Below are positions 8,646 through 19,063 of a stretch of 64,000 bases of DNA, piece by piece. This DNA is from Providencia rettgeri. GTDB lineage: Bacteria > Pseudomonadota > Gammaproteobacteria > Enterobacterales > Enterobacteriaceae. Under the pieces are notes generated by a model. The model was not told the DNA's origin. It searched no databases and saw only the letters and a list, made by a program, of their open reading frames with translations. Numbering within the stretch: position 1 is the first letter of the stretch; the number at the start of each line of letters is the position of its first letter. The DNA is taken from contig NZ_CP053896.1 in NCBI RefSeq assembly GCF_013255915.1, forward strand, positions 186,001 through 250,000, given 5' to 3'. A program made the translations under genes and the position numbers.

Positions 8646-10034
8646 CTATGAAGCGGATTTTGGCATTATTCCGTGGGCTAAATGGCCTTTATGGAAAGTC
8701 GCGAATCTTGGGGAAATCCGTGCGACTGCCTCAGCAGAACAAGATGCATCAAGCAGCACAAAGCTGGCGTCATCCCCTTTAGCTGGCCACATTTGTTGGC
8801 CTTTTTCATCTAACGGCAGAATATTGCCTGTTGCGATGGCAAGCGAACGGGACAGCGATAGTTCATCAGGGCGAGTATACAGCTGCGCGTATAAATTGGC
8901 TTTTTCTAGCATATCGCCTAGGCCAAAGGGCGACCAATGGTCAATCACACTATCCGTTCCGGTCATCACAAATACCCCATTTTTATTTAGGGTTTTCAGT
9001 GGCATATGCAGTGTGCCAATCGGGACGGTAGAGGCAATGGTAATTTGCTGCTCAGCCAACTGTTTTGCCGTTTTTTCCGCTTGTTCAGGGGTGAGTGTTG
9101 CCAGTGCAAAGGCATGGCTGATGGTCACTTTACCGCGTAAGCTGCGGTTTTCATCCACCGTTTTAATCATATAATTGATAGCGGCAACGCCTGCAGGGCT
9201 CGTTTCATGCAGATGAATATCCACGCCTTTGTTGTAGTCCAATGCAATTTGGAACATCGAATCGAGAGACTTTTCCATCGCGCTATCTACATTGGTTGGG
9301 TCTAAACCGCCAACGTAATGAGCGCCCGCTTGCATGGCTTCACGCATTAAACCCTCTGACTTGGAATGTAATAAACCATGTTGCGGAAAGGCGACAATTT
9401 CGCAAGTTAGGTCTTGTTGGTGTTCACCAAGCACTTTTTGTAAGGCTTCTAAATTTTTTAAACCGGAAACGGGTTCGATATTACAATGGCTACGAGCAAT
9501 GGTCGATCCTTGGGATTGGATCAGTGCGATCAGCGCATTCGCTCTTTCTTCCGTGAAAGGTTGTAATTCAGGTAGCAATTTTTGCTCTAACGCGATCATA
9601 TCCATAATGGTTTTGCCTTCACGTGACTGTGGCGCTTGCCATGGCCCGCCATAGAAAGTTTTATCAAGGTGGATATGCATGTCACGAAAGGCCGGTAGCA
9701 TCAGTTTGCCTTGCGCACTATAGGCATTTAATGTGCCATCAGCATGCTGTTTATTCGGTAAAACGGCTGCAATTTTACCGTCCCGGATTTCTACAGTGTG
9801 TAATGCGGTTTGGGTGCCGACGACCGTTGAATCTTGGTAATTAAAGCCAGTTTCGAGTAATACGTCATCGAGGTAATAATGTTTATCCGTAATACTGGAC
9901 TGGCTTGCTTTTTGGCTAGTTTGGTCTTGAGCGGAGGCAAAGCCCGATACCGCGCCGAATAAAGTGCAAGCGGCTGCGACTTTAGCGCTGGTGGAAAGGA
10001 ACTCTCTTCTGCCTGATGATTTTTCTGCTTTCAT
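8646..10034 (-). CDS. Tat-exported CodA-like amidohydrolase
   Basis: The start at 10034 has AGGAG five to six nt upstream; the longer frame to 10088 has none. Residues 1-35 form a twin-arginine signal peptide (GRREFLSTSA, hydrophobic stretch, ASA cleavage site), so the enzyme should act folded in the periplasm. The mature part is a metal-dependent TIM-barrel amidohydrolase of the cytosine deaminase/AtzC type. It shows HIHLDKTFYGG (metal His pair), HLHET, SHAFA and TGTDSVIDHWSPFG, which correspond in order to CodA motifs. It is the last gene after a permease and a carbamate kinase, so it may deaminate or open a nitrogenous ring before uptake. Export of a CodA-type enzyme is uncommon. The substrate is unknown. 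Confidence 0.8.
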   Translation of the reverse strand: MKAEKSSGRREFLSTSAKVAAACTLFGAVSGFASAQDQTSQKASQSSITDKHYYLDDVLLETGFNYQDSTVVGTQTALHTVEIRDGKIAAVLPNKQHADGTLNAYSAQGKLMLPAFRDMHIHLDKTFYGGPWQAPQSREGKTIMDMIALEQKLLPELQPFTEERANALIALIQSQGSTIARSHCNIEPVSGLKNLEALQKVLGEHQQDLTCEIVAFPQHGLLHSKSEGLMREAMQAGAHYVGGLDPTNVDSAMEKSLDSMFQIALDYNKGVDIHLHETSPAGVAAINYMIKTVDENRSLRGKVTISHAFALATLTPEQAEKTAKQLAEQQITIASTVPIGTLHMPLKTLNKNGVFVMTGTDSVIDHWSPFGLGDMLEKANLYAQLYTRPDELSLSRSLAIATGNILPLDEKGQQMWPAKGDDASFVLLDASCSAEAVARISPRFATFHKGHLAHGIMPKSAS

Positions 10035-10095
10035 AGAAACTCCTAGTGATATCCATTTACTGTCGAATTTCCTGTTTTTAAGCGACACTTACCCA

Positions 10096-10121
10096 CTCAG
10101 ATCGTCATCAAACGATCTGAG
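10096..10121 (-). other. Perfect hairpin between carbamate kinase and amidohydrolase genes
   Basis: CTCAGATCGT and ACGATCTGAG form a 10-bp perfect stem with a 6-nt loop. On the minus transcript no U-run follows immediately, so an RNA processing or stabilising element, or an operator, is as likely as a terminator. Confidence 0.5.
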
Positions 10122-10175
10122 GAATATTGCGGTTTGCGACTAACAAAAAATTCGCATGATCCAGATTATAGAAAC

Positions 10176-11126
10176 TTACCCTTGAACAATATGGGTTCCC
10201 GTTTCACCGCGTAAGGCTTCTGGTAGCTTTTCAGGGGTGGTGATGATCACACGTTTACCGCCATTGGCAATAAACGATAGGCTGGCTTCAATCTTCGGTA
10301 ACATGCTACCCGCTGGGAAATGGCCTTCTTCCATGTAGCGTTGCATGTCGCTAGTGCTGGTTTCGCCAAGTGCTTTTTGTTCAGGTTTGCCGAAGTGAAT
10401 ACACACTTTTTCGACACCTGTGGTGATAATTAAAATATCGGCATTGAGCTCTTTCGCCAGTAAAGTTGTTGAGAGGTCTTTATCAATCACCGCGTCAACA
10501 CTTTTGTAGCCACCATTGCCGTTATCAATGACTGGAATACCGCCACCACCTGCAGCAACCACCACATAATTGTGTTCTGTTAAAGTGCGGATTGCTTGTG
10601 ATTCAATCACACGTTTTGGTTCGGGGGAGGCCACCACACGGCGGTAACCGCGACCAGAGTCTTCAACAAAATGCCAGTTTGGGTTTTCTTGCTGTAATTG
10701 CTGAGCTTGTTGCTCAGTAAAAAATGCCCCAATCGGCTTGGTTGGCGCGCTAAAGTTTGGGTCGTTTTTATCGACTTCAACTTGTGTCACTACTGTAATT
10801 GCTTGGCGGTTATGGCGTTTTGCTAAGACGTTAGTCAAAGCTTGTTGAACTAAATAGCCAATTCCGCCTTGAGTATCTGCCACACAGTTAGCCAGCGGTG
10901 TTAAAGGTAAACCTTCGGTTTCGTGTGCAATTTCTGCACGGCGCAAATCTAATCCAACTTGAGGTCCATTTCCATGGGTCAAAACAATGTTGTAATTACC
11001 TTCAAGCATGTCACTAATATGATGTGCGACTTCTTGAACGGCTTTTTCTTGAGCTTCGATAGACTGGCTGTTGTTATCTTTGATAATACTGTTGCCCCCG
11101 ATGGCAACAACCACGAGTTCTTTCAT
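10176..11126 (-). CDS. Carbamate kinase
   Basis: Carbamate kinase makes ATP and carbamate from carbamoyl phosphate and ADP, the energy-yielding last step of arginine, allantoin/oxamate and similar fermentations. This 316-residue protein has the N-terminal VVAIGGNSI, the HGNGPQVG loop, CVADTQGGIGY, the AAGGGGIPV motif and VDAVIDKDLS, all family signatures. The start at 11126 (MKELVVVAIGGN) fits the usual N-terminus; an AGGAAA site is about 11 nt upstream. It lies 22 bp downstream of the permease gene and in the same cluster as FdrA/YlbE/DUF2877, the proteins tied to oxamate carbamoyltransferase in E. coli, where a carbamate kinase is also clustered. Family members include arcC and ybcF (allK); by context it resembles the latter. 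Confidence 0.92.
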   Translation of the reverse strand: MKELVVVAIGGNSIIKDNNSQSIEAQEKAVQEVAHHISDMLEGNYNIVLTHGNGPQVGLDLRRAEIAHETEGLPLTPLANCVADTQGGIGYLVQQALTNVLAKRHNRQAITVVTQVEVDKNDPNFSAPTKPIGAFFTEQQAQQLQQENPNWHFVEDSGRGYRRVVASPEPKRVIESQAIRTLTEHNYVVVAAGGGGIPVIDNGNGGYKSVDAVIDKDLSTTLLAKELNADILIITTGVEKVCIHFGKPEQKALGETSTSDMQRYMEEGHFPAGSMLPKIEASLSFIANGGKRVIITTPEKLPEALRGETGTHIVQG

Positions 11127-11202
11127 TGTTAATGTTTCCTGAGACAGAGATTTAGCTGATAGTAGGTGTACAGCGCACACCTACTATAAAAGGTTGGCTT
11201 AG

Positions 11203-12765
11203 TTACACTGACTTACTGAGTTTCTCAGATTTTTCAGCTTGTTGTTCTTCCACCGATTTCCGGCTATCTAAAAAGTGTTTGAGTACAAATAAAGCTGCCA
11301 TCATGAGGTATGCGTAAACAAACATCAAGGTTGAACCAGTAGCAATTCCGACCGCTGGGGAGTGAATAATTCCGAAGAATACTAATATTGCTCCCGCTGC
11401 AGCAGCAATGGCTCCACGCAGTGGTTGGTTGAGGATAGCAAAGATAGCAATACAGCCCCATAACATACTGGCTAACGGCGCACCGTTACCCAAATGAACT
11501 AGACCTTGGTAATAAACACCTTTGTGTAGCAAGGTTTCAACACCAATTGCACTCGCAGAGGTGCCCGCCGCGCCCATGACACTATTAACCATCGTCAATG
11601 CCCAGTTAGCAATCCATGGGAATAGACAGATAAAGATAACGGGAACTTCAATTTTTGGCGTTTCTCGCACAACTTGGTTGGCGGTGACGACACCGATAAA
11701 CACCAGTATTGGCACGATAGCGGTCATTGGAATGATAGCTAACATAAAGGCACCGATACCGAATAATGGGACGATAAACATAGTGATACCGGATGCTAGG
11801 GTATAACCTACGCTAGCGCCCATGGCTTTCCAACCCGCATGGCCGACATAAACAGTGACAGGGAATGGGTTACCCATAAAACAGCCAACTGTAGACGATA
11901 AACCGTTAGCTAACATAACCTTACGAGTATTATATTCATCACCTGCAGCATGCGCACTTTCAATATTTTCAAGGTCGAAGATATAGTTTGCTAAGCCAAG
12001 TGGTACCGCAGACGCTAAGTAAGGCAGAGCGTGTGGCAGGCCTTGGAAGAAGCTATCAATATGTATGCCCGGCGGGTTGAAACCAAATGACGCCATTGAG
12101 TCTTTGATTGCTTCCGCACTTTGCAAGCCAGAAACCCATGCCAATACCGTACCGGCAATTAGCAGCAATAAGCCAGTTGGGATGCGAGCAAAAATCGGTT
12201 TTTTACCAAACCAGTTAATGAAAATTAATAACAGCACAATGAATGAAACCGTTGGTGCTTCAAACGCTTGCAGCATCGGGTTCATCGCTAGTAACAGTAA
12301 TCCTAAACCTGACAAACAGGATAACAGTACGGTGCGAGGGATCATCTTACGGATGGTTTCACCTAAGAAAGAACCACCGACGAGGATCATTGACTCGACA
12401 AAACACCAAACTAGCGCAATTTGGATCGCAAATTCAGCATTCTGTGTTGTTTGGTAGACAGGCATGATGACTAAGAACGTCACCGTAAAGATAGAAGGCG
12501 CACTGGGCCCTGATGGTAAAGCGGTGACATCATTGCGTCCAGTTTGCTTTATCATTTGCTGGCCAAAGTAAGCATAGCTTACGCTGGCAAGTAAAACAGC
12601 GAAACCAAAGGCAGGAGCGATACGGCCGTAAACAATTTCTGATGGGATGCCGACAACGAAAATCAAGAGACCCATCATGGTGAGTAGGTTGGTTAGGTTA
12701 TTGGTCATTAAGCCGAAGTAGGCGGCCAAATCCCCACGTTTCCATTTGATATTTAGTATATTCAT
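11203..12765 (-). CDS. NCS2-type permease (purine/xanthine/uracil-like)
   Basis: This 520-residue inner-membrane protein has 12-14 hydrophobic segments. The motif NDVTALPSGPSAPSIFTVTF (about residue 78) is of the AzgA/NCS2 nucleobase permease type, and the region PLGLANYIFDLENIESAHAAGDEYNTRKV resembles the NCS2 segment before the second substrate helix. It is first in a transcription unit with carbamate kinase and a Tat-exported amidohydrolase. It therefore probably imports the nitrogen compound whose breakdown yields a carbamoyl group. The true ligand (ureide, pyrimidine, hydantoin or triazine-like) is not shown by the sequence. An ERIC element lies just upstream of its start. Confidence 0.75.
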   Translation of the reverse strand: MNILNIKWKRGDLAAYFGLMTNNLTNLLTMMGLLIFVVGIPSEIVYGRIAPAFGFAVLLASVSYAYFGQQMIKQTGRNDVTALPSGPSAPSIFTVTFLVIMPVYQTTQNAEFAIQIALVWCFVESMILVGGSFLGETIRKMIPRTVLLSCLSGLGLLLLAMNPMLQAFEAPTVSFIVLLLIFINWFGKKPIFARIPTGLLLLIAGTVLAWVSGLQSAEAIKDSMASFGFNPPGIHIDSFFQGLPHALPYLASAVPLGLANYIFDLENIESAHAAGDEYNTRKVMLANGLSSTVGCFMGNPFPVTVYVGHAGWKAMGASVGYTLASGITMFIVPLFGIGAFMLAIIPMTAIVPILVFIGVVTANQVVRETPKIEVPVIFICLFPWIANWALTMVNSVMGAAGTSASAIGVETLLHKGVYYQGLVHLGNGAPLASMLWGCIAIFAILNQPLRGAIAAAAGAILVFFGIIHSPAVGIATGSTLMFVYAYLMMAALFVLKHFLDSRKSVEEQQAEKSEKLSKSV

Positions 12766-12776
12766 AAAATACTCCC

Positions 12777-12901
12777 ATACCCGTCATACTTTGAACCGCA
12801 GCGTTGTTGGCTGCGTTCATTCACCCTAGTCACATACTTGTGTATGCTCCTAGGGACTCATTTACTTGCCGCCTAGCTGCAATTCAAATTATTTAGGGTA
12901 T
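12777..12901. repeat. ERIC element (enterobacterial repetitive intergenic consensus)
   Basis: This imperfect palindrome of 125 bp is bounded by ATACCC and GGGTAT. Its centre carries the two classic ERIC core segments: TTGGCTGCGTTCATTCACCC and, across the dyad, TATGCTCCTAGGGACTCATT followed by ACTTGCCGCC. It separates the allG-like gene from the permease gene and may affect mRNA processing. Only this copy is visible in the window. Confidence 0.9.
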
Positions 12902-12971
12902 ACCCCTACATTTTGAGTTACAGCACTGTTTTTCAAATAAAATTAATCAGGGTTCACGTTTTATTTTTATT

Positions 12972-12998
12972 GCCCAACCGGAGTTGGGCGTCTTTTTT
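12972..12998 (+). terminator. Hairpin with plus-strand T-run downstream of the allG-like gene
   Basis: GCCCAAC/GTTGGGC with a CGGA loop is followed on the plus strand by GTCTTTTTT. The U-run is on the strand opposite to the flanking genes, so on the minus transcript it is only a hairpin, perhaps a weak terminator or 3'-end stabiliser of the upstream operon. Confidence 0.5.
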
Positions 12999-13009
12999 AT
13001 GATTGAAAA

Positions 13010-14425
13010 CTAAGCATATTTCTGTGCGTAGGCCAACATGGCTTTTTCAAAGCAATCAAACGGCGGGTGAACAATACCTGCCCCAATCATACCGATGCCC
13101 GCATCTTTATGGGCAATGGCTGTGTTGATAACAGGTAAAATACCACTGGCTGAAACCTTCGTAATATCAATAGCTGTAGGGATACCCATAAAGCCCAGTA
13201 ATGGAATAGTCACGTTCGGGTTCTCACCTAAGGTGATTTCACGCATTTGGCGAGAGAAATCGACCGCTTCTTCTACCGTACCGCCAACGAGTGCCACAAT
13301 AGCTGGCGCTGTTGCCATAGCAAAACCGCCAATACCGTAGGTTTCTGTGATTGCGGAGTCACCGATATCTAAACCAGAGTCTTCAGGTTTGTAGCCTGCA
13401 AACATTGGGCCGATAACTTGCTGAGAAGGCCCTGTGAACCATTGACCTGGTAGTCCACTAATGCGTAAACCAAATTCATAGCCATTACGCGCCATGGTCG
13501 TGACAACCGTGCTGTATTCGATACCGTGAGCCGCATCCATTGATGCTTTACACATCGCCATCCACGTTGGGCCGGAGAAGTAATCGCTGCTTGCAACAAA
13601 ATCAAATACTTCTTTTTGCTGGGCGACAGAGAAATCAGTTTGAATGATCCCCGTTGTAAGCGCTTGAATCAGTAAGGTTGTCCCTGCATTGTTGCGGTTA
13701 TGGCACTCATCGCCCATATGCAGTGCTTGAGCAAGCATCAAACGCAGGTCGATTTCACCAACGATTTTCATTGCGTCGCGCAGCATTGGGCCTAATACAT
13801 CACGCATCCAATTTAAACGGTCTATTACACTTTGGTCGTTGGCACCCATGCGCAGGATTTTCGCCATTTGCTCACTGAGGTTAGTGAATGCACGGTTGCC
13901 ATAGGTTTTATTTTCAACGATATGCATAAACATCGATGCTGAAGTGACACCAGCCATCGAACCTACACAATCGTGTTCATGGCAAGGGGAGAAAATGATA
14001 TCCCCCGAGGCCGCAACACGTTCTGCATCGGCTAAGTCTTTCGCTAAGCCTTCAAAAACCAGCGCTCCCGTCACCGCACCTTTCATAGCGCCACACATAT
14101 CTTTCCAATCAACCGGTGGGCCTGCGTGTAGGATAGTATTTTTGGTCATGCCCGGAACCACATTAATCGCTTGGTCGTAACCGATTAACACAGGTTGAGA
14201 TTGAATAATGCGCTCAAGCGCTTGGGCATTGGCGGCCGCAATTTTTTCTTGTAGTGCGGCATTACCTTCAATTTGGTCGAGGGCGCGGATAACCGCAACG
14301 TTGCCTTGTCCGGGAGGAGTCCAGTTTAAATGCGTAACTGGAACATGTTGTTTTTTTAGGTCATCACTGAACATTTCGATGCCAACATTGATGACATTTA
14401 ATGGCAGCTTAAATAATGAAGTCAT
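13010..14425 (-). CDS. YlbE/AllG-like DUF1116 protein, oxamate carbamoyltransferase component
   Basis: This 471-residue protein matches the DUF1116/YlbE style: an N-terminal part ending in NVGIEMFSDDLKKQ, a GAVTGALVFEGLA segment, the CHEHDCVGSMAGVTSASM motif with clustered Cys and His, and a Gly-rich end (GIGMIGAGIVHPPFDCFEKA). In E. coli YlbE acts with FdrA and YlbF in oxamate carbamoyltransferase activity, making carbamoyl phosphate for carbamate kinase. Its ATG at 14425 overlaps the fdrA stop (TAATG), a sign of translational coupling. No allantoinase or ureidoglycolate genes are nearby, so the substrate here may not be oxalurate. Confidence 0.8.
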   Translation of the reverse strand: MTSLFKLPLNVINVGIEMFSDDLKKQHVPVTHLNWTPPGQGNVAVIRALDQIEGNAALQEKIAAANAQALERIIQSQPVLIGYDQAINVVPGMTKNTILHAGPPVDWKDMCGAMKGAVTGALVFEGLAKDLADAERVAASGDIIFSPCHEHDCVGSMAGVTSASMFMHIVENKTYGNRAFTNLSEQMAKILRMGANDQSVIDRLNWMRDVLGPMLRDAMKIVGEIDLRLMLAQALHMGDECHNRNNAGTTLLIQALTTGIIQTDFSVAQQKEVFDFVASSDYFSGPTWMAMCKASMDAAHGIEYSTVVTTMARNGYEFGLRISGLPGQWFTGPSQQVIGPMFAGYKPEDSGLDIGDSAITETYGIGGFAMATAPAIVALVGGTVEEAVDFSRQMREITLGENPNVTIPLLGFMGIPTAIDITKVSASGILPVINTAIAHKDAGIGMIGAGIVHPPFDCFEKAMLAYAQKYA

Positions 14426-15975
14426 TATGCTTTCTCCCCTTTCCATACAAACTCACGCCCTAATAAACCGGTATTGGTGCTGCTACTTGCCCAGATAACG
14501 CCGGCATCTGTTAGCATTTTGACCTGCGCATCCATCGACGGTGTGTCTTGGTCAGTACCCAGCACATAGCCTAAAATTTCTAATTCACGCCCATCTTGTT
14601 TGGCAATATTCTTCGCTTCTTTAATCGCGTCGATCATCACGCCTACTGGGTCTTCGTGAGAACCAAAGCCCAAAACGAAGTCCATCATAATGACGCCAAC
14701 TTCAGGGTCGCGAGCCTCTTGTAATAAGCGTTCAATGCGGTTGGTAGGGTCGATCATTGGGTGCGGTTTACCGTTGGTAAAGTCGTCATCACCAAAGTCG
14801 AGGAAAGTGTGTGCAATACTTTTGTTGAGGTCTTTTAAGCGATAATCAGGGTTTGGCTGAATATTGCTGTAAACATCATCGTATTTTTCCAAGGCGGCAA
14901 ACATGGCTTCATCGCATAGCGTTCCACCACAGAATAAGCCACGAATATATTTCTGCTCAGGTTTCAGTTTTGCTCTGACTTCGTCAATAAGTGGTAAATT
15001 AAGAGGGTGTAAATCTAAATCTTCTTTGCGAATACCGGTTAATAGAACGGCTTTCAGTGCGGCTTCTTTGGTGCCCTGAGCAAAGGTTAGACCGGGTTTG
15101 TCTTCTGGTAGTGGTTGGCTACCTAAGAAACACACAACAACTGGTTTGTGGCATTTTTCCGCTTGTTCTAACACTTTTTTCGCGACGTTAGGAGCTGGTG
15201 GCTTAGAGATCAATGCGATAACTTGGGTTTCATCATCGGCATCAAGCATTTTCAGGGCGTCAATCATCATGATACCGCCAATTTTCTCGCTTAAATCGCG
15301 ACCACCAGTACCAATTAATTGGGAAACCCCTGCGCCAAATTCGTGAATACGGACGCTAAGTTCTTGGCTACCCGTACCGGATGCACCGATGATGCCAATG
15401 CTGCCACGGCGAACGCTATTACCAAAGCACAGCGCGGTTCCGTTGATAATGGCAGTTCCGCAGTCAGGGCCCATCATCAGTAAGCCTTTTTTGCTAGCCA
15501 GCTGTTTAAGTGCGAGTTCATCTTCAATGGAGACGTTATCGGAAAATAGCATGACATTGAGGTCATTTTCTAACGCAATGCGTGCTTCACGGGCAGCAAA
15601 CTGACCATTTACTGAAATGACGGCAAGGTTGGCATCTGGGATATGTGTTTTCGCTGAATTAATGGTGGCGTATTTGGCTTCATGCTGCCCGCCGCCTTGA
15701 TTTTTCTTATTAAATAAATCTTCGATAGCAATTAATGTGGCTTCGTTAGCTTCATCACTTGGGCCTTTAATGACAATCATTAAATCGCCATTTTTAGCCT
15801 CTTCTAATTCAGGTGTTAGTAAACCTAAATTACGTAAAACACCTTTGTTCATCTCTGTTGCCATTGCGACGAACGCTTGCTCAACATTGTCGAGTTGATT
15901 GGCTTTTGTCGAAATAGACATCAGTGATACGGAATCAAAATAGGTATTCTTTTTTATGACAACTTTAGTCGACAT
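14425..15975 (-). CDS. fdrA: FdrA-like acyl-CoA synthetase-fold protein (AllF type)
   Basis: This 516-residue protein is related to the alpha subunit of succinyl-CoA synthetase. The CoA-binding-domain style signature GIIGASGTGSQELSV and the IGTGGRDLSEKIGG segment lie around residues 200-240. A second part follows with VVVCFLGS and a C-terminal region containing GVIMMDFVLGFGSHEDP. In E. coli FdrA is a component of oxamate carbamoyltransferase with YlbE and YlbF. The start at 15975 has GGAG six to seven nt upstream; the frame to 16023 would run far into the upstream gene. It overlaps that gene by 11 bp and the allG-like gene by 1 bp, so the three are probably made in fixed ratio. Confidence 0.88.
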   Translation of the reverse strand: MSTKVVIKKNTYFDSVSLMSISTKANQLDNVEQAFVAMATEMNKGVLRNLGLLTPELEEAKNGDLMIVIKGPSDEANEATLIAIEDLFNKKNQGGGQHEAKYATINSAKTHIPDANLAVISVNGQFAAREARIALENDLNVMLFSDNVSIEDELALKQLASKKGLLMMGPDCGTAIINGTALCFGNSVRRGSIGIIGASGTGSQELSVRIHEFGAGVSQLIGTGGRDLSEKIGGIMMIDALKMLDADDETQVIALISKPPAPNVAKKVLEQAEKCHKPVVVCFLGSQPLPEDKPGLTFAQGTKEAALKAVLLTGIRKEDLDLHPLNLPLIDEVRAKLKPEQKYIRGLFCGGTLCDEAMFAALEKYDDVYSNIQPNPDYRLKDLNKSIAHTFLDFGDDDFTNGKPHPMIDPTNRIERLLQEARDPEVGVIMMDFVLGFGSHEDPVGVMIDAIKEAKNIAKQDGRELEILGYVLGTDQDTPSMDAQVKMLTDAGVIWASSSTNTGLLGREFVWKGEKA

Positions 15976-16888
15976 AGTTTTCTCCGAAATAATGGGTGAT
16001 ATACAGGGCATCTCGCAAGCCAAATAGCATGTCGCTGCCAGAACTCGACCCGATATTTAAAATCTCTAAAAATTGTGGATAAATATTTGTTTCTTTCGCA
16101 TCAACTAATGATTGAATTAATTGCTGCATATTTTCGCGATATTCTCGGTTTAATGCTTTTTCTAATGTGATGGCACTGATAGGTGTCGTCTGGCTTAAGC
16201 TTTGGGTTATTCCTTGATAAAACTCAGGGTAAAAAGTGGCAGCCGGGTGACCGGTTAATAATAAAAATGCCATTAACCCAACTAAGTAATCATCTCCTGA
16301 AGGTGTTAGCCCGATACCTAATCCAACAAACTGGTGGATCACATAAATAATATTTTCTTTATTTTTCTTAATTATTGACTCAATCAATTCAGAGCGTAAT
16401 TGAACCAATTGCTCTGTCATAGAGAGATAAAAAAAGTTATCTCCCTGATATTTAAATAGAGAATTTTTATTTTCAGTTAAGATTAAATCCAAATTACTTA
16501 TTTGTTCTTCGATATATAATAAATAATTTGATTTCTTCAGTTCGTTATCACTAAAGTTGATAACTGGTTGCCGCCATTCTTTACATAAAGAAAATGATAT
16601 TAAATAATGACTACCAATCAATATTTCTTTATTCGATAAATTAATAGTCTCTCCTTCTTTAATATCGAAAAGAGAAAAGTCTTTATTGATTAATCGGCAA
16701 CTATTTGGTGCATTATCTAATTGAGAACAAAGAAAAGTATAAAGTACATTATCAATAGAAAAGTTAATGGCTTTATTAAATACTTGTTCTACTGTTCCTT
16801 GGGGTTGTGGCTGATTTAACAGATTGAGAAAATGTGTATCAGCCGTTAGCCCGTATAACCTTTGCCGATGAGATATGGATGCGTTCAC
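15965..16888 (-). CDS. DUF2877 protein (YlbF/AllH-like), third carbamoyltransferase component
   Basis: The 307-residue protein carries the DUF2877 hallmark GLGIGLTPSGDDYLVGLMAF (about residues 190-209) followed by a C-terminal IGSSSGSDMLFGLRDAL motif. In E. coli the equivalent YlbF works with FdrA and YlbE. It starts with GTG at 16888 close behind a strong AAGGAGG; an ATG one base earlier in another frame meets a stop at once. It overlaps fdrA by 11 bp. The N-terminal half (residues 20-150) is unusually rich in Asn, Ile and Lys and AT-rich compared with its neighbours, suggesting rapid divergence of that part. Confidence 0.8.
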   Translation of the reverse strand: MNASISHRQRLYGLTADTHFLNLLNQPQPQGTVEQVFNKAINFSIDNVLYTFLCSQLDNAPNSCRLINKDFSLFDIKEGETINLSNKEILIGSHYLISFSLCKEWRQPVINFSDNELKKSNYLLYIEEQISNLDLILTENKNSLFKYQGDNFFYLSMTEQLVQLRSELIESIIKKNKENIIYVIHQFVGLGIGLTPSGDDYLVGLMAFLLLTGHPAATFYPEFYQGITQSLSQTTPISAITLEKALNREYRENMQQLIQSLVDAKETNIYPQFLEILNIGSSSGSDMLFGLRDALYITHYFGENYVD

Positions 16889-16923
16889 ATGCCTCCTTAT
16901 CCTATTTAGAGTCTATGATTTCG

Positions 16924-17532
16924 CTAGGCTCCAGCTGCAATCAGTAACTCAGCAATCTCGTTATAGCCTTTTTCACGTGCTAGCTCTAATGGTTTTTTAC
17001 CATACTTATCAGTCATGTGAGGGTTTGCGCCATGGTCTAATAGCAATTTAACGATTTGCTGCTGTTTTTCGCCACCGTCGTTGAGTACGATAGCTTCTAA
17101 TAGTGGTGTCCAACCTACAAAGTTGGTATGGTTGACATTAATATCGGTTTTTTCAAGTAATTCACGAACAATTTCTACATGGCCTTTTTCACTAGCAGGT
17201 GTAATTCCCACGCCACCAAAACGGGTCAATAAATCTAAATTTGGTTTTGCAGGCAAGACAATACGCAATAAAGTGAGGTCATTATTAAGACAACTTAATA
17301 AGAAAGGGTTAAAACACGTTTGGTCTTGTTTATTAATATCCGCCCCTGCATTAATCAGAAAAGAAACACATTCATAATGTTTATTCAGGCTGGCATTGAC
17401 GATAGCTGTACGGCCTTGACGGTTGGTGGTATTAATATCCACACCTTTTTCAAGACAACTTTTTAATATTTCTAATTGTCCTTGTTCAGCGGCGGTTAAA
17501 AAATCGTGAGCGAGAGTACTAGCGGTCATCAT
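16924..17532 (-). CDS. Ankyrin-repeat protein heading the carbamoyltransferase operon
   Basis: This 202-residue soluble protein consists of about five ankyrin repeats. Repeats begin near residues 10, 37, 70, 102 and 142; good examples are GVDINTTNRQGRTAIVNASL, GWTPLLEAI and GANPHMTDKYGKKPLELARE. There is no signal peptide or membrane segment. It is the first gene before allH-, fdrA- and allG-like genes, 35 bp upstream, under a shared promoter opposite the LysR gene. Ankyrin repeats are protein-binding scaffolds, so it may assemble or regulate the carbamoyltransferase. This role is inference. Two ATGs (17532 and 17529) follow AAGGGG; the second has the better spacing. Confidence 0.85.
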   Translation of the reverse strand: MMTASTLAHDFLTAAEQGQLEILKSCLEKGVDINTTNRQGRTAIVNASLNKHYECVSFLINAGADINKQDQTCFNPFLLSCLNNDLTLLRIVLPAKPNLDLLTRFGGVGITPASEKGHVEIVRELLEKTDINVNHTNFVGWTPLLEAIVLNDGGEKQQQIVKLLLDHGANPHMTDKYGKKPLELAREKGYNEIAELLIAAGA

Positions 17533-18130
17533 TTTCCCCTTAGGTTGGTTTTTATTACCAACATAGATAAAGACAATTTAAAGGTGACTTCGAATATATA
17601 ATGGTTAGAGCATAGCAATTGTCATTAATAAAAAGAATCCGTTTAAATTTAATTCATCAATGAGGCGTTTTATTGTTGAATTAAATTCAATAATCCGGCT
17701 TTTTTGTGCGTGTGAGCATTATTTTTAATCGTTATTTGATAGTTTATGGCCATTTTTTGACCCGAATTGTGTGATTTTCTTTGTTAATTAAAATCGAAAA
17801 TCATGATTTACTCAGTTCTGTGATAGACATCAAATTGAAAGTTTTTAATTTGTTAAATTTGTAATTTTATTGATCGCAATCGTGTCGAATGTTAATACTT
17901 GGTTTGCCTATTTAATTCAATAATATTAGGTATTTCGAATATTAATAGTTACTTTAAAGGTGTGGTTTTTACTTGGCGAAAATGCATATCAAATTTAATC
18001 TATTCCAGTTGTTAATAATTCTGTTAAGCTATAAAAAAGTGCTCGAAAAATAATCTGATTTTTACGTTATTGAATTTTATTCACATAAAAATATGATTTG
18101 TCTAAATTTTAAACATTTTTGGCGGTGGGT
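17533..18130. promoter_or_regulatory. AT-rich divergent control region with long inverted repeat
   Basis: This spacer of about 600 bp separates the ankyrin/carbamoyltransferase operon from the divergent LysR gene. It contains a 15-bp inverted repeat with one mismatch (arms 17646-17660 and 17673-17687, core TTTAATTCA...TGAATTAAA), and the 11-mer AATTCAATAAT occurs at 17684-17694 and again at 17914-17924. These are candidate binding sites for the adjacent LysR regulator. No convincing small gene or RNA was seen in the rest. Confidence 0.45.
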
Positions 18131-19063
18131 ATGAACTCAATTTTTACGGAAGAAAACTTACTGACTTACACAACAGCGGCGAAGTTTGCGAGTTTTAGTA
18201 AAGCAGCGGAAGAATTAGGCGTGACCACCTCCGCGGTGAGTTATACCATCAAACGTATCGAAACCTATTTAGATGTGGCGTTATTTATTCGTAATACCCG
18301 TAATATTGAACTCACCGAAGCCGGTTATTATTTTTACCGCAAAGCAACCGACTTGCTTAATAATTTCCATTCCATTCAAAAAAGTATTTATTCTATTGAG
18401 CAAGGTATTGAAGCGCGGGTACGTATTTGTATTAATCAGTTATTATATACGCCGTATCATACCGCTAGGTTATTGCAAATATTAAAAAAACAGTTTGCTA
18501 CCTGCCACATTACAGTGACAACAGAAGTGTACAATGGGGTTTGGGATGCCATTATTAATAACCATGCGGATATTGCGATTGGCGCTCCGGGTACTTTGAT
18601 GGATGGCGGTGGAATTGACTACACTGAAATTGGTGCGATTCACTGGCAATTTGCTATAGCGGCAACTCACCCTTTGGCGCTGATGCCAGAGCCCATCGCT
18701 GAGAGCCAGTTGCGTCTTTATCCAAATATTATGGTAGAGGATACCGCGCATACCATTAATAAGCGGGTGGGCTGGCTACTACATGGGCAAGAGGCAATTC
18801 AAGTTCCTGATTTTAATACTAAATGCCAGTGTCAGATACTCGGTGAAGGGATTGGCTTTTTACCCGATTATATGATCAAAGACCATGTTAAACATGGTTT
18901 GTTGGTAACAAAACAAATTCAGAACCCACGACAAGATTCCCATATGCTATTAGCCACACAACATTCAGCTACTGGGCTTGTGACGCAGTGGATCCGCAAA
19001 GAATTTGGCGAAAAGGGGGTTCTAGCAGACCTCTACAGCGATCTCCTAAAACCCATCAATTAG
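18131..19063 (+). CDS. LysR-family transcriptional regulator
   Basis: The 310-residue protein has the LysR winged helix-turn-helix at residues 10-65 (FASFSKAAEELGVTTSAVSY, then LFIRNTRNIELTEAG) followed by the two-lobed effector-binding domain. It is divergent from the ankyrin/AllFGH-like operon and so is its likely activator, with an inducer from that pathway. I prefer ATG 18131, preceded by GGCGGTGG, over the TTG at 18119. The gene ends 2 bp from the convergent esterase gene. Confidence 0.85.
   Translation: MNSIFTEENLLTYTTAAKFASFSKAAEELGVTTSAVSYTIKRIETYLDVALFIRNTRNIELTEAGYYFYRKATDLLNNFHSIQKSIYSIEQGIEARVRICINQLLYTPYHTARLLQILKKQFATCHITVTTEVYNGVWDAIINNHADIAIGAPGTLMDGGGIDYTEIGAIHWQFAIAATHPLALMPEPIAESQLRLYPNIMVEDTAHTINKRVGWLLHGQEAIQVPDFNTKCQCQILGEGIGFLPDYMIKDHVKHGLLVTKQIQNPRQDSHMLLATQHSATGLVTQWIRKEFGEKGVLADLYSDLLKPIN

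What the first reader, a model, noticed from the sequence alone, without database searches (positions are those of the whole stretch)
8646..17532. Carbamoyltransferase cluster cut loose from allantoin breakdown
FdrA, YlbE and DUF2877 proteins form oxamate carbamoyltransferase in the E. coli allantoin pathway. Here they sit with carbamate kinase, an NCS2-type permease, an exported CodA-like amidohydrolase and an ankyrin protein, and there are no allantoin genes. The gene set suggests a complete route: outside deamination, uptake, carbamoyl transfer, ATP. The substrate is unknown, and a ring-opening step in the cytoplasm is missing or done by the amidohydrolase. This is the best candidate for an undescribed pathway in the window.
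Basis: partly seen in the sequence, partly recalled or inferred. Interest (0 to 1): 0.78.

Follow-up and report, generated by a model that had tools for sequence, protein, structure and literature searches.

The report
E. coli yah-type ureide operon
This is the Providencia-like version of a widespread E. coli gene cluster (yah) of unknown function that probably turns a urea-containing compound from outside the cell into ammonia and ATP, and relatives of its genes lie beside genes for breaking down triuret, cyanuric acid and the herbicide atrazine.

Summary
The seven genes are present at the stated coordinates, but they are not an unseen set. They are the E. coli yahD-E-F-G-I-J operon with its divergent LysR gene yahB, plus a permease gene between G and I. 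In 80 related loci there is always exactly one of two membrane proteins, the permease (65) or YahC (15); the tree needs one swap. "No allantoin genes" holds only for the window: the genome has an allantoin cluster with its own allFGHK 1.4 Mb away. YahG forms its own clade, apart from allantoin AllG and from a clade found beside triuret/biuret- and cyanuric-acid-hydrolase genes. The amidohydrolase is Tat-exported and AtzC/CodA-like with its catalytic residues kept. On atrazine plasmids, atzC lies behind a truncated DUF1116 gene and a carbamate kinase, the same order as here. Best reading: YahJ makes a ureide outside, the permease imports it, YahEFG phosphorolyses it to carbamoyl phosphate, YahI makes ATP. 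No reaction is shown. Oxalurate is the leading substrate candidate because an Enterococcus faecalis homologue joins the YahG clade. The label "NCS2" is not supported.

The parts
8646..10088 (-). yahJ orthologue: Tat-exported AtzC/CodA-like amidohydrolase (likely start 10034)
   Evidence: NF005312 660 bits over cut-off 447; 70% identical to E. coli YahJ; catalytic set H138, H140, Q236, H292, E295, H325, D379 kept, K143 as in AtzC, S380 in place of CodA D314
9930..10034 (-). Tat signal region of YahJ (SGRREFL...ASA)
   Evidence: RRx[FL] motif upstream of the HIHLDK motif in 77 of 77 YahJ of the related loci; E. coli YahJ listed as Tat substrate in PMC7549933 (passages)
10176..11180 (-). yahI orthologue: carbamate kinase (likely start 11126)
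   Evidence: NF009007 557 bits over cut-off 266
11203..12765 (-). permease, 520 aa, unassigned family; absent from the E. coli K-12 yah locus
   Evidence: no Pfam/NCBIfam/PDB match; 38-39% identical to permeases of AllFGH clusters with a triuret/biuret-hydrolase-like gene
13010..14446 (-). yahG orthologue: AllG-type transcarbamylase subunit with the FdrA C-terminal module at its N-terminus (likely start 14425)
   Evidence: PF06545 297 bits; 85-86% to E. coli YahG, 43% to own AllG; module at residues 15-66
14425..16023 (-). yahF orthologue: FdrA/AllF-type subunit (likely start 15975)
   Evidence: NF004760 500 bits over cut-off 433; 78% to E. coli YahF, 37% to own AllF
15965..16888 (-). yahE orthologue: AllH-type subunit, low GC (32.7%)
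   Evidence: PF11392 95 bits; GC; lost from 24 of the 80 related loci
16924..17532 (-). yahD orthologue: ankyrin-repeat protein, first gene of the operon
   Evidence: Ank_2 117 bits; present in 79 of 80 loci, the other cut by a contig end
17819..17834 (-). CRP-like site TTTGAN6TCACA in the divergent promoter region
   Evidence: one mismatch to TGTGAN6TCACA in 46 of 78 D-LysR intergenic regions, shuffles give 1.1; the loci are related, so not independent
18119..19063 (+). yahB orthologue: divergent LysR regulator of the AllS/PunR group
   Evidence: best NCBIfam models AllS 265 bits and PunR 236 bits, both under cut-off; present in 77 of 80 loci, the others being contig ends

Best explanation
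The cluster is the Providencia-type version of the E. coli yah operon: a stand-alone ureide-scavenging unit, a paralogue of the allantoin oxamate-transcarbamylase operon and separate from it. Inferred working: (1) YahJ, exported by Tat, removes an amino or imino group (as AtzC and CodA do) from a small nitrogen heterocycle or acyl-guanidine in the periplasm, giving ammonia and an oxo compound; (2) the permease (or YahC in the E. coli group) imports the product, which is or becomes a linear ureide; (3) YahFG, with YahE where present, transfers its carbamoyl group to phosphate; (4) carbamate kinase YahI makes ATP, and carbamate decays to ammonia and CO2. YahB probably controls it; YahD's role is unknown. 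Shown: gene order, orthology, conservation, Tat motif, catalytic residues, separate clade. Inferred: every reaction and both transport steps. The most likely ureide is oxalurate (about 0.4), otherwise another N-acylurea; ring opening, if needed, is spontaneous or done by an enzyme encoded elsewhere.
For: Conserved operon: 75 of 80 loci have J, I, G, F, D and LysR. The homologous AllFGH is oxamic transcarbamylase in E. coli (PMC11326118, passages). YahG is one clade, 95/97 support, apart from allantoin AllG. The Enterococcus faecalis structure 3clq is its sister (100/100) at 69-73% identity, against 44-46% to allantoin AllG; E. faecalis is stated to have oxamate transcarbamylase (PMC3282769, passages). 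The catalytic residues of CodA/AtzC-type deaminases are kept in 80 or 81 of 81 YahJ. The import/phosphorolysis part occurs without YahJ (Providencia rustigianii L019; an E. coli IncF plasmid copy), and YahJ occurs without that part (L131, L132), as expected of a supplier plus a self-sufficient consumer. The permease family is shared with other AllFGH clusters.
Against: E. coli lacking allFGH made no oxamate from allantoin (PMC11326118, passages), so chromosomal yahEFG did not replace it there (not induced, or another substrate). 22 YahG positions differ from residues shared by the allantoin and triuret-type clades, and 3clq shares 15 of them, which suits a different specificity. YahE is lost from 24 of 80 loci, and two sampled genomes of that layout have no AllH match at all; PMC11326118 concludes that three genes are needed, although its tables show a little oxamate without allH (1.2 mM against 17.7 mM). 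The permease could not be assigned to a transporter fold. The separable halves can also be read as two unrelated functions. No substrate was tested. Whether E. faecalis has another AllG could not be checked.
Confidence: 0.55

Rival explanations
1. YahEFG is simply a second oxamic transcarbamylase: the operon uses external oxalurate (or parabanate, which opens to oxalurate) made by other organisms or by YahJ, independent of allantoin. (This is the leading form of the best explanation, not exclusive of it.)
For: Sister placement of the E. faecalis 3clq protein; E. faecalis oxamate transcarbamylase (PMC3282769, passages); titles seen in reference lists only: induction of oxamate transcarbamylase by parabanic acid (1965) and an oxalurate pathway with a third carbamate kinase in S. 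faecalis (1986).
Against: No oxamate in E. coli delta-allFGH; YahG differs at 22 positions that the allantoin and triuret-type clades share; parabanate opening is recalled chemistry, and YahJ's part is not shown.
Confidence: 0.4
2. YahEFG phosphorolyses a biuret-like ureide, as its relatives beside triuret/biuret- and cyanuric-acid-hydrolase genes may do, with YahJ acting on an aminotriazine- or acyl-guanidine-like precursor.
For: Permease family shared with triuret-type clusters; YahJ nearest to AtzC among AtzC, CodA and an Aminobacter enzyme; atzC itself beside a truncated DUF1116 gene and carbamate kinase; one triuret-type G (Peptoclostridium) groups with YahG (95/90, long-branch warning).
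Against: YahG lies outside the main triuret/cyanuric-acid clade; no AtzD-family ring-opening hydrolase found in this genome (though no control genome rang either); AtzC-like enzymes in general are not tied to AllG (1 of 29 places).
Confidence: 0.2
3. YahJ and YahEFG are only co-located: YahJ is a periplasmic ammonia-releasing deaminase, and the rest of the operon uses an unrelated ureide.
For: YahJ occurs without AllG (2 of 8 over-cut-off genomes) and the rest without YahJ (L019, IncF plasmid copy).
Against: YahJ follows the carbamate kinase gene in 77 of 80 loci; two of the other three are contig ends.
Confidence: 0.2
4. The operon is a redundant or decaying second copy of the allantoin pathway.
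For: Paralogy of F, G, H and CK; YahE lost in some lineages; broken E in the IncF plasmid copy.
Against: Order and genes conserved across many genera; own dedicated allFGHK elsewhere; distinct residues.
Confidence: 0.08

Closest known systems
E. coli yahB-yahC / yahDEFG-yahI-yahJ locus
   Same: Same genes, order and divergent LysR; F, G and J 78%, 85-86% and 70% identical
   Different: Window has the permease between G and I and no YahC; E. coli K-12 has YahC and a repetitive stretch in the G-I gap
E. coli allFGHK (oxamic transcarbamylase and carbamate kinase of the allantoin pathway)
   Same: Homologous F, G, H subunits and carbamate kinase
   Different: Compared here with the window genome's own copy: 37% (F) and 43% (G) identity, separate clade, module moved from F to G, no allC/allD/allE neighbours in the window
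AllFGH clusters with a triuret/biuret-hydrolase-like gene (e.g. IncF plasmid L118, Peptoclostridium L116)
   Same: F, G and mostly H and carbamate kinase; the yah-type permease family in four of them (L116, L123, L145, L146)
   Different: Cysteine hydrolase instead of exported YahJ; mostly a different AllG clade
AllFG-CK clusters with cyanuric acid hydrolase (plasmids L117 and Aminobacter pSR8 L112)
   Same: F, G and carbamate kinase; L112 also has a CodA/AtzC-like amidohydrolase
   Different: Ring-opening AtzD-family enzyme present; another transporter family
AtzC, N-isopropylammelide isopropylaminohydrolase of atrazine plasmids
   Same: Closest solved relatives of YahJ bear this name; Lys after HxHxD; located behind a DUF1116 fragment and carbamate kinase
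   Different: About 30% identity; no RRx[FL] motif in its first 60 residues; separate clade

Membership tests
E. coli yah operon | Gene order D-E-F-G-(x)-I-J with divergent LysR | tested here: met
E. coli yah operon | YahC (DUF1097) beside the LysR gene | tested here: not met
   The window has the permease instead; of 80 related loci 65 have the permease, 15 YahC, none both
Oxamic transcarbamylase (AllFGH) | F, G and H subunits encoded together | tested here: met
Oxamic transcarbamylase (AllFGH) | G subunit in the allantoin AllG clade | tested here: not met
   YahG is a separate clade
Oxamic transcarbamylase (AllFGH) | Activity on oxalurate/oxamate | not testable with these tools
   Only indirect: E. 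faecalis 3clq sister placement
Catabolic carbamate kinase | Carbamate kinase model over cut-off | tested here: met
   NF009007 557 bits, cut-off 266; arcC TIGR00746 357 bits, just under its cut-off 358
AtzC/CodA-type deaminase | HxH, Q, HxxE/D, H, D catalytic set | tested here: met
AtzC/CodA-type deaminase | Deaminase activity on a ring substrate | not testable with these tools
   no assay
NCS2 permease | Xan_ur_permease (PF00860) or profile similarity | tested here: not met
   No Pfam match for the window protein and no PF00860 among matches of 18 members; hhalign 0.1% (shallow profiles); structure prediction could not be run
Tat substrate | RRxFL signal | tested here: met
   77 of 77

The most novel reading that the evidence does not exclude
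AllFGH-type enzymes are a family of N-acylurea phosphorylases with at least three specificities: oxalurate (allantoin operons), carboxybiuret or biuret (operons with triuret-hydrolase-like or cyanuric acid hydrolase genes, the known enzymes of both kinds yielding carboxybiuret), and a third one in yah. This would be an unrecognised ATP-saving route for triuret, cyanuric acid and related oxidation products of purines. The yah branch is fed by a periplasmic deaminase, and the atrazine gene atzC was captured from an operon of this layout.
Probability: 0.35. Interest if true: 0.75.

Novelty: new variant of a known kind. Interest (0 to 1): 0.52.

Why it matters
The yah operon is present in E. coli K-12 and many gut bacteria, and I found no assigned function; placing it in a family of ureide-phosphorolysing operons gives a short list of substrates and an enzyme assay. 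If the carboxybiuret branch is real, triuret and cyanuric acid (oxidation products of uric acid, and residues of fertiliser, herbicides and disinfectants) can be used with ATP gain, and the origin of the atrazine gene atzC becomes traceable.

Tried and rejected
NCS2 identity of the permease: rejected on sequence, though profiles were shallow and no model could be made. Ring opening by an AtzD-family enzyme in this genome: no match (no control rang, so weak). Viral contigs: no relatives of YahG. FNR site in the divergent promoter: 7 of 78 regions with at most one mismatch against about 3.7 in shuffles, and 48 with two against 25.5; not convincing, since the CRP-like site overlaps this pattern. 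AtzC-like enzymes as general partners of AllG: rejected, 1 of 29 places; only 2 of the 27 genomes have an AllG, one of them on another contig. Permease/YahC exclusion as many independent events: rejected, one change on the tree. Inverted repeats of 12 bases or more in the G-permease gap: none; one terminator-like stem of 8 pairs points the other way. Promoter and terminator scans overall: 20 and 12 found, shuffles 24.5 and 11.3.

Of the 26 over-cut-off AllG places in the order sample I read the wider surroundings of 22; both places of G550, G608 contig 3 and G750 were not read. Three long-branched AllG rows used (L134, L120, the second L141 gene) were dropped. Pepto_B was left out of the residue comparison. 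My ORF caller can hide genes under longer overlapping frames. L049 was left out of the 79-row tree.
Full report
What is there. The window lies at 186001-250000 of contig 1 of a 4.74 Mb genome. On the minus strand, 17532 down to 8646, seven genes follow each other with short gaps or overlaps, except for 244 bases between G and the permease. Family scans give ankyrin repeats, AllH (PF11392), FdrA/AllF, AllG (PF06545), a protein without any family, carbamate kinase and amidohydrolase NF005312. A LysR gene diverges from the first gene.

It is the yah operon. A DNA search with the E-F-G part finds the yah genes of E. coli at 72% identity; 5368 of 5426 E. coli genomes have some match, which may include the more distant allFGH. 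In MG1655 the order is yahB, yahC, yahD, yahE, yahF, yahG, yahH, yahI, yahJ. The window proteins F, G and J are 78%, 85-86% and 70% identical to the E. coli ones. The E. coli gap between yahG and yahI translates as a repetitive stretch, with no permease.

Distribution. One scan of 84,980 species genomes with YahG gave 146 relatives, of which the best 80 were kept. In these 80 loci: G 80, F 79, carbamate kinase 79, ankyrin 79, LysR 77, J 77. The missing ones are contig ends, except J in L019 (Providencia rustigianii). YahE is not found in 25; one of these (L049) is a contig end, so 24 look like real losses, with 14-370 bases left between D and F. They are Enterobacter, Leclercia, Lelliottia, Silvania, Huaxiibacter and an unclassified Enterobacteriaceae isolate, plus Aeromonas cavernicola; the tree needs two changes. 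Two sampled genomes with this layout, G629 and G804, have no PF11392 match anywhere. PMC11326118 (passages) concludes that E. coli oxamic transcarbamylase needs three genes, but its table shows 1.2 mM oxamate without allH (17.7 mM in the wild type), so this subunit may be accessory.

Transporter swap. All 80 loci have exactly one of the 520-aa permease (65) or YahC/DUF1097 (15). On the YahG tree of 79 rows this takes one change, so it is one replacement event, not 15 independent ones. It still suggests that YahC does the permease's job. The permease is 38-39% identical to permeases encoded in four other AllFGH clusters (L116 with two, L123, L145, L146). It matches no family or solved structure, and its profile does not match two NCS2 proteins.

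Not the allantoin operon. The same genome has a second AllG at 1.6056 Mb inside what reads as a complete allantoin cluster: allE, allC, allD, allF, allG, allH, allK, allS, allR, gcl, hyi, glxR, an NCS2 permease, allB, allP and glxK (names by my reading of the sequences, Pfam matches for four neighbouring or member proteins). Window F and G are 37% and 43% identical to those. The roughly 50-residue module at the end of allantoin-type F (4 of 4) is at the start of G in 10 of 11 other sets, absent from one, and between the two parts in one fused protein.

The wider family. tblastn against plasmids and surveys of 299 (phylum) and 197 (order) genomes showed other AllFGH operons. Eleven carry a cysteine hydrolase (L116, L118, L122, L123, L128, L136, L137, L144-L147); a carbamate kinase was seen in 7 of the 11, and in L145 and L147 there is no room for one after G. 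The one compared with solved structures (L118) is closest to triuret hydrolase (269 bits), then biuret hydrolase (243 bits or less); for L118 and L116 the biuret hydrolase model scores below its cut-off. L118 also has a stand-alone allophanate-hydrolase C-terminal domain by Pfam, and six others have a relative of it. Two plasmid clusters have a cyanuric acid hydrolase (L117: 581 bits; L112: 551 bits; cut-off 360). PMC7948467 (passages) states that triuret hydrolase and cyanuric acid hydrolase both yield carboxybiuret, and that oxidation of uric acid can give triuret and cyanuric acid. In the tree, the L117 cyanuric-acid cluster lies inside the main cysteine-hydrolase clade (99/97), the Aminobacter one beside it (93/91); but the Peptoclostridium cysteine-hydrolase G groups with YahG instead (95/90, with a long-branch warning). 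So, if the cysteine hydrolases are triuret hydrolases, one transcarbamylase clade is paired with two different enzymes that make the same intermediate, which suggests that it works on carboxybiuret or biuret. PMC12625717 (passages) reported allFGHK beside triuret/biuret genes in comammox bacteria and read them as oxalurate genes; PMC12928451 (passages) described such an E. coli cluster as related to pyrimidines and oxalurate.

YahJ and atzC. YahJ's nearest solved relatives are named AtzC, then CodA. In 81 YahJ rows each deaminase residue is kept in 80 or 81; the residue after HxHxD is Lys (as in AtzC; Thr in CodA), and CodA Asp314 is Ser in 80. All 77 YahJ of the loci have a twin-arginine motif. 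E. coli YahJ is listed as a Tat substrate of unknown function, and its loss gave a competitive index of 0.70 (p = 0.02) in an animal competition assay (PMC7549933, passages). On three atrazine plasmids atzC is preceded by a carbamate kinase gene and a truncated DUF1116 gene, and followed across an IS5 element by a transporter; the one compared (L114) is 34-36% identical to those of the cyanuric-acid clusters. That is the order G-CK-amidohydrolase of yah. The carbamate kinases there are 47-50% identical to yahI and to the Aminobacter one. In 398 genomes, AtzC relatives reach only 29-35% identity at 29 places in 27 genomes; the best-scoring place lies in an AllFGH cluster (G636, L124), and 25 of the 27 genomes have no AllG at all. 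So the link is specific to a few lineages, and no close parent of atzC was found. No paper in the library holds both 'atzC' and 'carbamate kinase'.

Separable halves. Of 8 genomes with YahJ over the model cut-off, 6 have an AllG within about 5 kb (for G550 and G608 judged by coordinates only) and 2 have no AllG. One of these keeps LysR, ankyrin and YahJ only; the other has YahJ beside a LysR-like gene. Conversely L019 and a copy on an E. coli IncF plasmid (ColV-type by recall) lack YahJ; the plasmid copy also has E broken into two frames. This fits a supplier (YahJ) and a self-sufficient import/phosphorolysis unit, but also two unrelated functions.

Substrate. The protein 3clq, from E. faecalis according to PMC10647573 (passages), is sister to YahG at 100/100 and 69-73% identical. 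E. faecalis is stated to have oxamate transcarbamylase (PMC3282769, passages). The papers on parabanic acid induction (1965) and on an oxalurate pathway in S. faecalis (1986) I saw only as titles in reference lists. This favours oxalurate. Against it, E. coli without allFGH made no oxamate. YahG also departs at 22 positions from residues shared by the allantoin and triuret-type clades, against 8 where the triuret-type clade alone departs and 20 where the allantoin clade alone departs; 3clq has the YahG residue at 15 of the 22. I put oxalurate at about 0.4 and leave other N-acylureas open.

Verdict. A real, conserved operon of known but uncharacterised genes, in a variant with a permease; probably a ureide-to-ATP scavenging route.

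Noticed in passing
L117 and 48 of 132 plasmid records with a cyanuric acid hydrolase match (3 at >=99%, 44 at 95-99%, 1 at 90-95%): A nearly identical cyanuric acid hydrolase gene rides on plasmids of Citrobacter, Klebsiella, Enterobacter, Leclercia, Raoultella and others, many from human samples or showers. In all 16 of these records that were listed in both searches, the DUF1116 gene lies about 5.5 kb away. Isocyanurate disinfectants could be a selective source (my speculation).
   Followed up: partly
L113, L114, L115 (atrazine plasmids): atzC sits behind a truncated DUF1116 gene and a carbamate kinase, suggesting capture from an AllG-CK-amidohydrolase operon; an IS91-type transposase gene lies just upstream in L114.
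   Followed up: partly
L013:5258-6810: The genome's allantoin cluster has a hydantoin-racemase-family protein with a Tat-like N-terminus and an OHCU-decarboxylase-family protein with a signal-like N-terminus: a second case of apparently exported ureide enzymes.
   Followed up: no
window:17819-17834: CRP-like site in the divergent promoter region, one mismatch in 46 of 78 loci; the two E. coli-type loci printed (L075, L059) have two mismatches at best.
   Followed up: partly
L143:7304-10330: Natural FdrA-AllG fusion protein of 1008 aa in an allantoin-type cluster, with the shared module between the two parts.
   Followed up: partly
window:5132-8594: MFS transporter, LacI regulator and nucleoside hydrolase genes next to the operon; found with it in only 2 of 80 loci (L018 all three, L020 two of them on a shorter contig piece), so probably a separate unit.
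   Followed up: partly
L110 (E. coli IncF plasmid): A second yah copy in E. coli with the permease, a broken E gene and no YahJ, with IS elements nearby.
   Followed up: partly
window:15965-16888: YahE has 32.7% GC against 44-47% for F, G, permease, CK and J and is the most divergent gene: 35-41% identity in 42 of 55 loci, mean 44% against 71-88% for the others.
   Followed up: no
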